A stretch of 64,000 nt of DNA from Thermoleophilaceae bacterium. Its GTDB lineage: Bacteria; Actinomycetota; Thermoleophilia; Solirubrobacterales; Thermoleophilaceae. Shown in pieces: positions 18,335-26,243 of this stretch. Each line of letters begins with the position of its first letter. The first letter of the stretch is position 1. A program made the translations under genes and the position numbers. Location of the stretch: contig DASUWY010000076.1 of assembly GCA_036378175.1 (NCBI GenBank), forward strand, positions 1 to 64,000. Direction: 5' to 3'. The notes under the pieces were generated by a model, which was not told where the DNA came from, made no database searches, and saw only the letters and a program-made list of their open reading frames with translations.

Positions 18335-19123
18335 TCAGCTGAGCTTGCCGCTACCCGCCGCGCGGCTGATGATGCTGCCGCCTGGCCCACGCAGGACGAT
18401 CGCGAACAGAACCGCCAGCAGCGCGCCGGCGAAGGGTCCGACGAGGTAGATCCAGAAGCCGCCGAAGTCGCCGCGGATCAGGTCGGGCGCAAACGATCGT
18501 GCCGGGTTCATCGACGCGCCGCTGATCGGACTCGCCCACAGCCCGGCGAGCACGATGTAGCCGCCCACGGCCACGGCGGAAAGCGCGCCCACATTCTGTG
18601 CGCCAGATGCGGTGCCGAGGATCGTGCTCACGAGCCCGGCGGTGAGGGCCAGCTCGATCAGCATCGCCTGCCAGTCGTGGATACCGGCCCCCGCCACCGT
18701 GGCTCCCAGCTCGGCCACGTTGCCGATCACCGCGCGCAGGAACAGGATCGCGAGCGACGCCCCCATGAGCTGGGCGACGATGTAGCCGACCGAACGCCGC
18801 CACGGGAAGTCCGAGCGCAGCCCGAACGCGATCGTCACGACCGGGTTGAGGTGGGCGCCAGATACCGCGCCCATGAAGAGGATGATCGCCATCACCGTGA
18901 GCCCCGGAGCGGCCACCGCGGCCGTGCGGCTGATCTGACCACCGCTGGCCGCGTTCACCATCGGCGCGCCCGCCCCGGCCATCACCAGCATGAAGGTGCC
19001 GAGGATCTCGGAGAAGAGCCGCCGCCACTCGAGCGTGGGATCGTCGAAGTCCTGGATCGCTGGATACTCGAGAGCGAGGAGCGCACGCCAGCGGCGATGC
19101 GCGTCATCCGTCCTACTCGCCAT
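18335..19123 (-). CDS. MIP/aquaporin family channel
   Basis: The 262-residue membrane protein has six predicted helices and the two half-helix signature loops of aquaporins. The second is standard (ASMNPARSF, near residue 210), but the first is AHLNPVVT near 95, with NPV instead of NPA. Transport of water, glycerol or other small neutral solutes across the plasma membrane is likely. The N-terminal 40 residues are hydrophilic and longer than in AqpZ. The change in the first NPA loop can widen selectivity in known MIPs, so the substrate is left open. Confidence 0.9.
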   Translation of the reverse strand: MASRTDDAHRRWRALLALEYPAIQDFDDPTLEWRRLFSEILGTFMLVMAGAGAPMVNAASGGQISRTAAVAAPGLTVMAIILFMGAVSGAHLNPVVTIAFGLRSDFPWRRSVGYIVAQLMGASLAILFLRAVIGNVAELGATVAGAGIHDWQAMLIELALTAGLVSTILGTASGAQNVGALSAVAVGGYIVLAGLWASPISGASMNPARSFAPDLIRGDFGGFWIYLVGPFAGALLAVLFAIVLRGPGGSIISRAAGSGKLS

Positions 19124-19865: not shown

Positions 19866-21560
19866 ATGCCGTCCAGGGCTCCGGCGCGGGATCTCGCGAT
19901 CTATCACGACCGCACGCGTAGGCGTGGCGTGAACCCGCTCGTGTACTGGATCGTCCGCGGCGTGCTCCAGCCGCTGATGCTCATCTACTTCCGGCTCACC
20001 CGCATGGGCCGCGACCACGTGCCGAAGGAGGGCGGCGTCCTGCTCGCGCCGAACCACCGCAGCTTCCTCGATCCCTTCGTGATCGGCATCTGCGTGAGCC
20101 GGCCGGCCTACTTCATGGCGAAGCAGGAGCTGTTCCAGAACCGGCTGCAGGCTTGGCTCCTCAACTGCCTTGGGGCTTTCCCGGTGCGGCGCGGCGAGGC
20201 CGACGAGGAGGCGATGCAGACGGCGCGGATGCTGCTCGAGCGCGGCGAGACCGTGCTCGTGTTCCCTGAGGGCACGCGCATCCGCAAGGGCTCGCTCGGC
20301 AAGCCCAAGCGCGGGGTGGGCCGCCTCGCGCTCGAGACCGGCGTGCCGGTCGTGCCCATCGCCGTGATCGGCACCGAGAACACGCGCCGCGGCTGGAAGA
20401 TCCGGCCCGCGAAGGTGAAGGTGCGCCTGGGCCGCCCGCTCACCTTCCCGCGCGTGGACCATCCCTCGCCGCGTCTGGCCGCCGAGGTGACCGAGCGCAT
20501 CTGGCCCTGCGTGGAGCTCCAGTGGGAGTGGCTAGGCGGACTGCCGCCGATGCGCAAGGCGGCGATCGTGGGCGCCGGCTCGATGGGCACCGCGATCGCG
20601 ACCCTTCTTGCGCGCGCCGGCATCGAGGTGCAGCTCGGCTGCCGCACGCAGGCCACCGCCGAACGCATTCAGGAGCAGCGCGAGAACGAGCGCCTGCCCG
20701 GCGTGGAGCTTCCCGACGAGGTGAAGGTCTCCACCGTCGCGGCCATCGAGTTCGGCGGCGTGGACCTCGTGTGCTTCGCGGTGCCGTCGCGTGATCTGCC
20801 CGCTGCCGTGGCCCAGGTTGGGGCGAAGGTGGGACAGCGCAGCGCCGTGCTCGTGCTCTCGAAGGGCCTCGTCCCGCCGCTCGGCCTCACGCCCACCAGC
20901 TACGTCGCGGAGCGGATCCCCGCACGTGCTGTGGGAACGCTGGGCGGGCCCGCCCACGCGGCCGAGGCCGTGCGTCACGGCGCGTCGGTGGTGCTCGCGT
21001 CGAGCGACGCGAACTTCCGCGCGCAGCTCTCGAAGATCCTGCAGGACGCCGGACTCGACGTGGAGACCACGGACGACGTGGCCGGTGCCGAGCTCGCGGC
21101 TTGCGCGAAGAACGCGGCCACGCTCGCGGCGGCCGCGGCCGCCACCAGCGGCATGAACGCGGCGGGCGCCGCCGCCTCGCGCGTGTTCGCCGAGATGCAC
21201 AGGCTGGCGCTTCACTCCGGTGGCCGCACCGAGACCTTCATGGGCCTGGCCGGCACCGGCGATCTCGTGGGCACCACGCTCGCGGATCACAGCCGCAACC
21301 GGCGCGCCGGCGAGCTGCTCGGCCGCGGCATGCCGGCCGACCAGATCGCCGCGATGCTGGAGGGCACCCCGGAGAGCCTCGACGCTGTGCCGCTGCTCGT
21401 CCGCGCATTCGAGGAGGCGGGCCTGGAGGCGCCCGCGACCAACGATCTCGGTGCGCTGATCGACGGCCGCCTCGATGCCGAGGAGTGGGTTGCGAGCGTG
21501 AGGGCTCGCAAGGCCGGGGGACGCTGGCGCGAGCGCGCCACCGCTGGCTCGCGAGGGTAG
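19866..21560 (+). CDS. PlsC–GpsA fusion: lysophosphatidate acyltransferase plus glycerol-3-phosphate dehydrogenase
   Basis: One 564-residue frame joins two phospholipid enzymes. Residues 1–225 are a PlsC-type acyltransferase with a membrane-associated N-terminus, NHRSFLD (H64, D69) and FPEGTR at 133–138. From M229, MRKAAIVGAGSMG starts a complete NAD(P)-dependent glycerol-3-phosphate dehydrogenase: Rossmann loop GAGSMG 236–241, VLSKGL, GGPAHAAE, the AACAKNAATLAA active-site segment and the C-terminal helical domain. There is no stop or ribosome site between the parts. GpsA makes glycerol 3-phosphate and PlsC adds the second acyl chain; PlsB/PlsY acts between them. ATG 19866 is used, but GTG 19851 is also in frame. 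Confidence 0.9.
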   Translation: MPSRAPARDLAIYHDRTRRRGVNPLVYWIVRGVLQPLMLIYFRLTRMGRDHVPKEGGVLLAPNHRSFLDPFVIGICVSRPAYFMAKQELFQNRLQAWLLNCLGAFPVRRGEADEEAMQTARMLLERGETVLVFPEGTRIRKGSLGKPKRGVGRLALETGVPVVPIAVIGTENTRRGWKIRPAKVKVRLGRPLTFPRVDHPSPRLAAEVTERIWPCVELQWEWLGGLPPMRKAAIVGAGSMGTAIATLLARAGIEVQLGCRTQATAERIQEQRENERLPGVELPDEVKVSTVAAIEFGGVDLVCFAVPSRDLPAAVAQVGAKVGQRSAVLVLSKGLVPPLGLTPTSYVAERIPARAVGTLGGPAHAAEAVRHGASVVLASSDANFRAQLSKILQDAGLDVETTDDVAGAELAACAKNAATLAAAAAATSGMNAAGAAASRVFAEMHRLALHSGGRTETFMGLAGTGDLVGTTLADHSRNRRAGELLGRGMPADQIAAMLEGTPESLDAVPLLVRAFEEAGLEAPATNDLGALIDGRLDAEEWVASVRARKAGGRWRERATAGSRG

Positions 21561-21569: not shown

Positions 21570-22106
21570 GTGGCCGGGCTCGCGGACAAGGCAGCCCTCG
21601 ACCGCGAGTTCGAGGAGCTCTACAGGGCACACCTGCGGGACGTGTACAGCTACGCGTACTACCGCGTCGGCAACCATCACGACGCCGAGGACCTCACCGA
21701 GCAAACCTTCCTTCAGGCCTACCGCCATTTCGAGCGGGCGCAGCGCGAGTCACAGGGGAGGCCGCTGCGGCCGTGGCTCATCCGCATCGCCCACAACCTC
21801 GCCGCGAACTACTACCGGGACCGCTCGCGCAAGCCGCAGACTCAGCTCGAGGACGCCGCCGTGGTGTCCGAGCCGCACCCCACGGCAGAGCTCGTGGAGC
21901 AGCGCGAGGAGCTGGAGGAGGTGCTCGCGGGCGTGGCGAATCTTCCCGATGACCGTCGCGAGGCTCTGATCATGAGGTTCGCTCTCGACATGGACAACCG
22001 CGAAATCGCCCGCGCCCTGGGGCGCACCGAAGGCGCGACCAAGGTGCTCATACATCGAGCGATCAGGCAATTGGAGGAGAGCCTGAAGGCAGAGGAGCCA
22101 GCTTGA
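21570..22106 (+). CDS. ECF-type RNA polymerase sigma factor
   Basis: The 178-residue factor has region 2 (LYRAHLRDVYSYAYYRVGNHHDAEDLTEQTFLQAYRHF, read in segments) and region 4 (LPDDRREALIMRFALDMDNREIARALGRTEGATKVLIHRAIRQL). There is no extra domain. The GTG start is supported by a TAGTCT box 6 bases upstream. The stop overlaps the next gene by 4 bases (TTGA), which makes that small membrane protein its likely regulator. Confidence 0.92.
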   Translation: MAGLADKAALDREFEELYRAHLRDVYSYAYYRVGNHHDAEDLTEQTFLQAYRHFERAQRESQGRPLRPWLIRIAHNLAANYYRDRSRKPQTQLEDAAVVSEPHPTAELVEQREELEEVLAGVANLPDDRREALIMRFALDMDNREIARALGRTEGATKVLIHRAIRQLEESLKAEEPA

Positions 22107-22429
22107 CCGACGTCGAACGCCTACTCCGTTCCGCGCTCGTGCCAGTCGAGCCGCCGGTGTCGCTCGTCGACCGCCTCGAGGTGCGGTTGAGCGAGACGGT
22201 GGACATCGCGGCCGAGGAGCTGGCCGACTGGGAGCTGAGCGCGATGCGCGACCCGCGCAACTGGGTTCCCACGGTCGCGGCCGGCGCCGTGCTCGCGGCC
22301 GCCGGCGGCACGCTCGTGCTCGTGCGCGCGCGGCAGCAGCAGAAGAAGCGGCATGCGGGTGTGCTGAAGGCGCTCGAGCAGAGCGTCGAGGACGTGTCGT
22401 CGGACATCCGCAAGCGGCTCGGGCGCTAG
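22103..22429 (+). CDS. Small membrane protein, candidate anti-sigma factor
   Basis: The 108-residue protein has a hydrophilic N-terminal half (residues 1–55, EDRLEV-like acidic and basic helices), one membrane helix near 57–74 (VPTVAAGAVLAAAGGTLVLV) and a basic C-terminal helix. There is no zinc-binding HxxxCxxC motif. Its TTG start overlaps the ECF sigma stop by 4 bases, the usual arrangement for sigma/anti-sigma pairs. The anti-sigma role is inferred from context and layout only. Confidence 0.65.
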   Translation: MTDVERLLRSALVPVEPPVSLVDRLEVRLSETVDIAAEELADWELSAMRDPRNWVPTVAAGAVLAAAGGTLVLVRARQQQKKRHAGVLKALEQSVEDVSSDIRKRLGR

Positions 22430-25433: not shown

Positions 25434-26243
25434 GTGGAGACCTGCTATCGCCATCCCAGCCGTGAGACGGGGGTGGCGTGTTCCAATTGCGGACGGCCGA
25501 TCTGCCCGGAGTGCATGACCCCGACGCCGGTGGGCATGCGCTGTCCCGAGTGCGCGCGCCAGCGGACGAAGGTCGTCCGCGCGCGGAGCATGTACGGCCG
25601 GCCGAACGTCACGTACGCGCTGATCGCAATCAACGTGGTGGCCTTCCTGGCCGAGCTTGTGAGCGGAGTGAGCGCGGCCGGCAACAGCTTCGGCGGCAGC
25701 AAGATCATCCTCCACGGCGCGCTGTTCGGCCCGAAGGTCGCCGACGGTGAGTACTACCGCATCCTCACCTCCGGCTTCCTCCACTTCAACCTCTGGCACA
25801 TCGCGTTCAACATGTACGCGCTCTACATCCTGGGCACGATGCTCGAGCCGGCCATCGGGAGCTTCCGCTTCGCGCTCATCTATTTCGTGGGACTCCTCGC
25901 GGGGTCGTTCGGAGCGCTCATCGTCACTCCTGACAGCTTCACCGTGGGTGCGTCCGCGGCCGTGTTCGGGCTCTTCGGCGCCGCGATCGTGGAGATGCGG
26001 GCGCGAGGCGTCGACGTGATGTCCACGGGCTTGCCGCTGTGGCTCGGGATCAACCTGATCTTCACCTTCGCCTTCAACGGCATCTCGATCGGGGGCCACA
26101 TCGGCGGCTTGATCGGGGGAACGCTCGCCGGAGTTGCGATCGGCGAGCTCGACAAGCGGCGCGACGTGCCGCGGATGGCAGGGCCCATCGCGGCGGTCGC
26201 GATCGGCGTGATCTCGGTGATCGGCGCGATCGCCGTCGCGTAG
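25434..26243 (+). CDS. Rhomboid family intramembrane serine protease with zinc-finger N-terminus
   Basis: The 269-residue protein begins with a B-box-like zinc finger (C4, H7, C16, C19 and further CxxC pairs to residue 40). Six membrane helices follow, with rhomboid signatures: HFNLWHIAFNMYAL near 117–130, the catalytic Ser in VGASAAVFG (S174) and the catalytic His in GGHIGGLIGG (H222). It cleaves membrane proteins within their helices; the substrate is unknown. The GTG start is preceded by TATCGT 7 bases upstream, suggesting a leaderless message. The stop codon is the first base triplet of a 290-bp inverted-repeat element. Confidence 0.94.
   Translation: METCYRHPSRETGVACSNCGRPICPECMTPTPVGMRCPECARQRTKVVRARSMYGRPNVTYALIAINVVAFLAELVSGVSAAGNSFGGSKIILHGALFGPKVADGEYYRILTSGFLHFNLWHIAFNMYALYILGTMLEPAIGSFRFALIYFVGLLAGSFGALIVTPDSFTVGASAAVFGLFGAAIVEMRARGVDVMSTGLPLWLGINLIFTFAFNGISIGGHIGGLIGGTLAGVAIGELDKRRDVPRMAGPIAAVAIGVISVIGAIAVA

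What the first reader, a model, noticed from the sequence alone, without database searches (positions are those of the whole stretch)
19866..21560. PlsC–GpsA fusion: two phospholipid-synthesis enzymes in one chain
The acyltransferase domain (NHRSFLD, FPEGTR) runs without stop or ribosome site into a complete glycerol-3-phosphate dehydrogenase. The enzymes act at the entry and second acylation of phosphatidate synthesis, so a fusion may channel or balance glycerol 3-phosphate use at the membrane. I do not know of a described example.
Basis: partly seen in the sequence, partly recalled or inferred. Interest (0 to 1): 0.65.

Follow-up and report, generated by a model that had tools for sequence, protein, structure and literature searches.

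The report
Fused lipid acyltransferase–glycerol-phosphate dehydrogenase enzyme
A real gene in a group of soil actinobacteria joins an enzyme that finishes phosphatidic acid (PlsC) to the enzyme that makes its glycerol-phosphate backbone (GpsA); the join arose once, spread through a whole order, and in some families is the only copy of the backbone-making enzyme.

Summary
The fusion is real. Window 19866-21560 (+) encodes 564 aa: Acyltransferase PF01553 (47-167), then NAD_Gly3P_dh_N PF01210 (232-382) and _C PF07479 (404-542), with about five residues between the halves. It is not an artefact: catalytically intact copies were read in 44 genomes of the same order (Solirubrobacterales, Actinomycetota), including single-contig ones. 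In 26 of these 44 the codon at the putative GpsA start is not ATG/GTG/TTG. Trees give one origin: a GpsA duplication in the order's ancestor, one copy fused behind plsC. No fusion turned up in 146 genomes of other orders of the class or elsewhere in a phylum sample. In families f3 and f4 the free GpsA is gone and the fused half is the only GpsA-family protein. About five lineages, mostly keeping the free copy, lost the fused half in place; others keep a decayed half. The order also lacks PlsY (30 of 31 genomes), while a second acyltransferase sits beside glycerol kinase. Most likely PlsC anchors an active GpsA at the membrane, so glycerol 3-phosphate is made where it is acylated. Direct channelling is doubtful, because the two enzymes are not consecutive. 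I found no description in the papers searched.

The parts
19866..21560 (+). plsC-gpsA fusion gene, 564 aa
   Evidence: ORF and translation; Pfam; 44 intact copies counting this one; AF2 mean pLDDT 90.2, pTM 0.84
19866..20540 (+). PlsC half, residues 1-225
   Evidence: PF01553 at residues 47-167; TIGR00530 98.4 bits against a cut-off of 102.95; PDB 5kym PlsC
20052..20072 (+). acyltransferase motif I NHRSFLD (HX4D), residues 63-69
   Evidence: N63 H64 R65 S66 F67 D69 invariant in 28 fusions
20262..20279 (+). acyltransferase motif FPEGTR, residues 133-138
   Evidence: F133 P134 E135 G136 R138 invariant in 28 fusions
20520..20555 (+). junction QWEWLGGLPPMR, residues 219-230
   Evidence: conserved in relatives; codon at M229 is not ATG/GTG/TTG in 26 of 44
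20553..21560 (+). GpsA half, residues 230-564
   Evidence: PF01210 + PF07479; structure match 3k96, TM-score 0.91-0.92 by target length; K333, K415, D466 and R477 invariant
21570..22106 (+). ECF-like sigma factor gene directly downstream, conserved neighbour
   Evidence: Sigma70_r2 and r4_2; downstream of plsC(-gpsA) in 59 of 62 loci
22103..22429 (+). small protein of 108 aa with one apparent membrane span, overlapping the sigma gene, conserved neighbour
   Evidence: no Pfam match; present in the same 59 loci

Best explanation
One bifunctional protein. The N-terminal half is a membrane-associated 1-acyl-glycerol-3-phosphate acyltransferase (PlsC type). Through a very short, probably rigid junction it carries an active NAD(P)H-dependent glycerol-3-phosphate dehydrogenase (GpsA). 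The GpsA half reduces DHAP to G3P at the membrane. A separate G3P acyltransferase makes lysophosphatidate: the order lacks PlsY, and the acyltransferase beside glpK with an EGGRSR motif is the candidate. The PlsC half then completes phosphatidate. The fusion therefore ties backbone supply and the last acylation together in place and in amount, rather than passing an intermediate directly. Shown: single reading frame, conserved fusion, intact catalytic residues, purifying selection, one origin, and sole-GpsA status in two families. Inferred: both activities, membrane location, identity of the middle enzyme, and the benefit of co-location.
For: Both domains far above cut-off. 44 intact fusions with all checked catalytic lysines, GDL and RN motifs conserved. 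Window genus pair dN/dS 0.19 (PlsC half) and 0.08 (GpsA half); values well below 1 in all other pairs. The fused half is the only PF07479 protein in all 14 f3 genomes that have one, in 5 of 5 f4 genomes, and in g37. In G009 and G155 it is the only GpsA and has no in-frame ATG/GTG/TTG at the junction. GpsA tree: fused halves one clade (96/96), sister to the order's free GpsA. AF2 pTM 0.84 for the whole chain argues for a defined arrangement of the halves. PlsY absent in 30 of 31 order genomes and PlsX present in all 18 tested. f4 genomes hold exactly two PF01553 proteins, the fusion and the glpK-linked one.
Against: No biochemistry. The GpsA half was lost at least four or five times and decayed in others, so coupling is not essential. 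Four genomes of the order (G055, G173, G195, G219) showed no GpsA at all, and all 31 order genomes tested have GlpK, so another G3P source exists. The specificity of the PlsC half is inferred from motifs only.
Confidence: 0.55

Rival explanations
1. Neutral fusion: both halves are active, but joining them has no benefit. Two neighbouring genes merged once in the order's ancestor and the join persists by inertia.
For: plsC and gpsA are neighbours in other actinobacteria: plsC-der-(plsY)-gpsA in sister orders, and 55 bp apart on a Micromonospora plasmid. The GpsA half has been lost or has decayed repeatedly.
Against: In f3 and f4 the free copy, not the fused one, was lost. The junction stays short and conserved over sequences only 54-67% identical.
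Confidence: 0.22
2. Direct channelling: the acyltransferase half itself acylates G3P (alone or besides LPA), replacing the missing PlsY, so GpsA hands G3P straight to its partner domain.
For: PlsY is missing in 30 of 31 order genomes. In mycobacteria the PlsC-like PlsM acylates both G3P and LPA (PMC10593935). Two acyltransferases of the order are each tied to a G3P source: one fused to GpsA, one next to glpK.
Against: The fused half has FPEGTR and scores close to the AGPAT model, while the glpK-linked acyltransferase has the EGGRSR motif, which I recall as typical of PlsB G3P acyltransferases. PlsC-only loci survive without the GpsA half.
Confidence: 0.15
3. The frame is shared, but GpsA is also (or mainly) made separately from an internal start at ATG 20550.
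For: An ATG with a weak AGGCGG upstream exists here, and 18 of 44 fusions have ATG, GTG or TTG at that codon.
Against: 26 of 44 do not, including genomes whose only GpsA is the fused one (G009, G155) and which have no in-frame ATG/GTG/TTG near the junction.
Confidence: 0.06
4. Artefact of assembly or a lost stop codon in this one genome.
For: The window comes from a draft assembly of 89 contigs.
Against: Same gene, junction and neighbours in 43 other genomes, including single-contig ones (G034, G047, G223).
Confidence: 0.01

Closest known systems
[quoted passage not shown] Thermotoga maritima PlsC, PDB 5kym)
   Same: HX4D and FPEGTR motifs; similar fold; two N-terminal helices in the model
   Different: Carries a complete GpsA at its C-terminus
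GpsA, NAD(P)H-dependent glycerol-3-phosphate dehydrogenase (PF01210 + PF07479; Coxiella GpsA, PDB 3k96)
   Same: Whole fold (TM-score 0.91-0.92 by target length), catalytic lysines, GDL and SRN motifs
   Different: No free N-terminus; attached to an acyltransferase; forms its own clade, sister to the order's free GpsA
Separate neighbouring plsC and gpsA genes of other actinobacteria (e.g. Micromonospora terminaliae plasmid pLB1)
   Same: Same two enzymes encoded side by side in the same order and strand
   Different: Two genes, two proteins
Dunaliella salina bidomain glycerol-3-phosphate dehydrogenase (PDB 6iuy)
   Same: A G3P dehydrogenase as one domain of a longer chain, so fused dehydrogenases are a known kind
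   Different: Not an acyltransferase fusion; from my own knowledge the partner domain is a phosphatase-type domain

Membership tests
PlsC / AGPAT (PF01553) | Acyltransferase domain with HX4D motif and FPEGTR | tested here: met
   PF01553 111.8 bits against a cut-off of 23; motifs conserved
PlsC / AGPAT (TIGR00530) | Score above the curated cut-off of the AGPAT model | tested here: inconclusive
   98.4 bits against 102.95 for the whole protein, 100.9 for the half: just below
PlsC / AGPAT | Acylates 1-acyl-G3P at sn-2, not G3P | not testable with these tools
   needs an enzyme assay
GpsA (PF01210 + PF07479) | Both Pfam domains, Rossmann GxGxxG, catalytic Lys, GDL and SRN motifs | tested here: met
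GpsA | DHAP reductase activity with NAD(P)H | not testable with these tools
   needs an enzyme assay; indirect support from sole-GpsA genomes
Fused bifunctional enzyme | One frame without stop or necessary internal start, conserved in relatives | tested here: met
G3P acyltransferase (PlsY or PlsB type) | PlsY family PF02660, or PlsB-type EGGRSR motif | tested here: not met
   the fused half is PF01553 with FPEGTR

The most novel reading that the evidence does not exclude
In an order that has lost PlsY, the fused acyltransferase half does the first acylation of G3P as well as the second. One polypeptide would then run DHAP to lysophosphatidate (or phosphatidate) at the membrane with direct hand-over of G3P.
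Probability: 0.13. Interest if true: 0.75.

Novelty: new variant of a known kind. Interest (0 to 1): 0.5.

Why it matters
It is a natural, order-wide link between the enzyme that makes the phospholipid backbone and one that acylates it. It raises the testable question of whether bacteria position GpsA at the membrane. It comes with built-in natural variants: fused only, fused plus free, decayed half, and cleanly deleted half. It also bears on how an actinobacterial order with PlsX but without PlsY starts phospholipid synthesis.

Tried and rejected
Stops flagged by the genome search in some relatives lie at residues 537-566 of the reading, at the C-terminal end, not between the domains (in one search several loci were read on the wrong strand because both strands are open at this high G+C, and were redone). 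The broken reading in G026 (PlsC half split at residue 180) and the garbled C-terminus in G010 look like draft-assembly frameshifts and were left out of the counts. An association of intact fused GpsA with absence of the free copy is strong in raw counts (Fisher p = 0.0007), but only two phylogenetically independent pairs exist on well-supported branches, so it cannot be called significant. The placement of the g32 PlsC-only group near the base of the PlsC tree is weakly supported, so the number of losses is given as at least four or five. Literature searches found no report of a PlsC-GpsA fusion. The library lacks most subscription papers and no domain-architecture database was available, so annotation-level prior knowledge is likely and cannot be excluded. 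No search outside Actinomycetota for distant fusions was possible beyond plasmids (only two records covered most of the query, each in two pieces; the annotated one is two separate genes).

Full report
What is there. The frame 19866-21560 (+) is open and encodes 564 aa. Pfam finds Acyltransferase PF01553 at 47-167, NAD_Gly3P_dh_N at 232-382 and NAD_Gly3P_dh_C at 404-542, all far above cut-off. NCBIfam's GpsA models align over 229-548, and the AGPAT model TIGR00530 over 45-167 just under its cut-off. The nearest solved structures are GpsA (3k96) and PlsC (5kym) by sequence and by fold. AlphaFold2 on 28 fusions gives mean pLDDT 90.2 and pTM 0.84. With the larger half making up about 60% of the chain, a pTM this high suggests that the relative placement of the halves is predicted too; no error matrix or coordinates were available to confirm it. 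Only about five residues (LPPMR) lie between the WEWLGG end of PlsC and the first GpsA strand.

Not an artefact. The nearest named relative (91% identity) is a Thermoleophilaceae MAG. Full-length copies occur across four families of the order, including single-contig assemblies. The stops that the search reported lie at the C-terminus. At the codon matching Met229, 26 of 44 intact fusions have CTG, CTA, CTT, CTC, GCG or ATC, and 11 have no ATG/GTG/TTG near the junction at all. CTG can start translation rarely, so this is strong but not absolute. In the window genus both halves are under purifying selection (dN/dS 0.19 and 0.08).

Distribution and origin. None of the 146 sampled genomes from other orders of the class matched at E <= 1e-60, and in a phylum sample of 396 genomes only members of this order matched at 1e-55. 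A colinear fusion elsewhere should pass those limits. The tree of GpsA domains puts 44 intact fused halves in one clade (96/96), sister to the order's free GpsA (100/89), and both together apart from other orders. The simplest history is one duplication in the order's ancestor, then one fusion. In sister orders plsC, der and gpsA lie in one cluster, with plsY next to gpsA in G064 (der is named from its sequence, not from a family search). In Micromonospora plsC and gpsA are direct neighbours. So the fusion joined genes that are often linked anyway.

What happened afterwards. All 14 f3 genomes with a GpsA and all five f4 genomes have one PF07479 protein, the fused one; so do g37 and the best g9 genome. 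Conversely, 12 loci from five genera encode PlsC alone, ending shortly after the same W..GG motif. In all 12 the same sigma gene follows, so the GpsA half was removed in place. On the PlsC tree these fall in about five places among the fused ones. Six further genomes keep a long frame whose GpsA half has lost catalytic residues (G004, G018, G024, G048, G046, G192; for example CAQSAA for CAKNAA), and each has a free GpsA. Raw counts among genomes at least about 90% complete are: intact fused 16 with and 19 without free GpsA; lost or decayed 16 with and 1 without (Fisher p = 0.0007). Too few independent pairs exist for a phylogenetic test. The pattern still suggests that the fused GpsA half is kept where nothing else can do its job, which is the best evidence here that it works as a dehydrogenase.

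Pathway setting. PlsY (PF02660) is missing in 30 of 31 genomes of the order and present in all four sister-order genomes tested, while PlsX was found in all 22 genomes tested. Glycerol kinase is present in all 31 order genomes. In 17 of 20 relatives examined it lies directly upstream of a second PF01553 protein, and 1.2 kb upstream in one more; that protein nearly always has EGGRSR in place of FPEGTR. f4 genomes contain only these two PF01553 proteins. I infer that the glpK-linked one makes lysophosphatidate and the fused one completes phosphatidate. From memory EGGRSR is typical of PlsB; I could not verify this in the papers searched. The caution comes from mycobacteria, where the PlsC-like PlsM acylates both G3P and LPA (PMC10593935).

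How it most likely works. The PlsC half sits on the membrane, as T. maritima PlsC does through a two-helix motif (known to me from the paper cited by title in PMC10593935); the model shows two helices at residues 7-20 and 24-41. It holds GpsA there, so DHAP is reduced to G3P beside the acyltransferases. Direct channelling is not the natural reading, because G3P is not the substrate of an LPA acyltransferase. Co-location and fixed stoichiometry around the middle step are more plausible. A neutral fusion kept by inertia is the main rival.

Verdict. The architecture is a new variant built from two known enzymes, order-wide and apparently undescribed in the literature I could search. Function and advantage remain to be shown.

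Noticed in passing
window 21570-22429: An ECF-like sigma factor and a 108-aa protein with one apparent membrane span, overlapping it and without a Pfam match, follow plsC(-gpsA) in 59 of 62 loci of the order. They may form a sigma/anti-sigma-like pair tied to membrane lipid synthesis.
   Followed up: partly
G000:C40:35965-38167 (L062 2966-5222) and loci L160-L176: Glycerol kinase is followed within 34-160 bp by a short PF01553 acyltransferase with an EGGRSR motif in most genomes of the order: a second pairing of a G3P source with an acyltransferase.
   Followed up: partly
whole genomes G000-G060: The order has PlsX but lacks PlsY in 30 of 31 genomes tested. What uses acyl-phosphate, if anything, is unknown.
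   Followed up: partly
L066, L075, L076, L078, L082: PlsC fusions whose GpsA half has lost catalytic residues yet remains a long open frame: a possible non-catalytic (regulatory or scaffold) domain or slow decay.
   Followed up: partly
window 25434-26243: Downstream lies a gene whose product begins with a cysteine-rich zinc-ribbon-like segment (CYRHP..CSNCGRPICPECM). Similar genes lie near the fusion in f1, f3 and f4. It looks like a rhomboid-type membrane protease; no family search was run.
   Followed up: no
G052:C1:1860999 and 5018858, G012:C181, G027:C9: A few genomes hold extra GpsA copies that score much higher to PF07479 (E about 1e-52 to 1e-56) than the order's own, suggesting import from elsewhere.
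   Followed up: no
window 18335-19123: Major intrinsic protein (aquaporin or glycerol facilitator family) encoded on the opposite strand just upstream.
   Followed up: no
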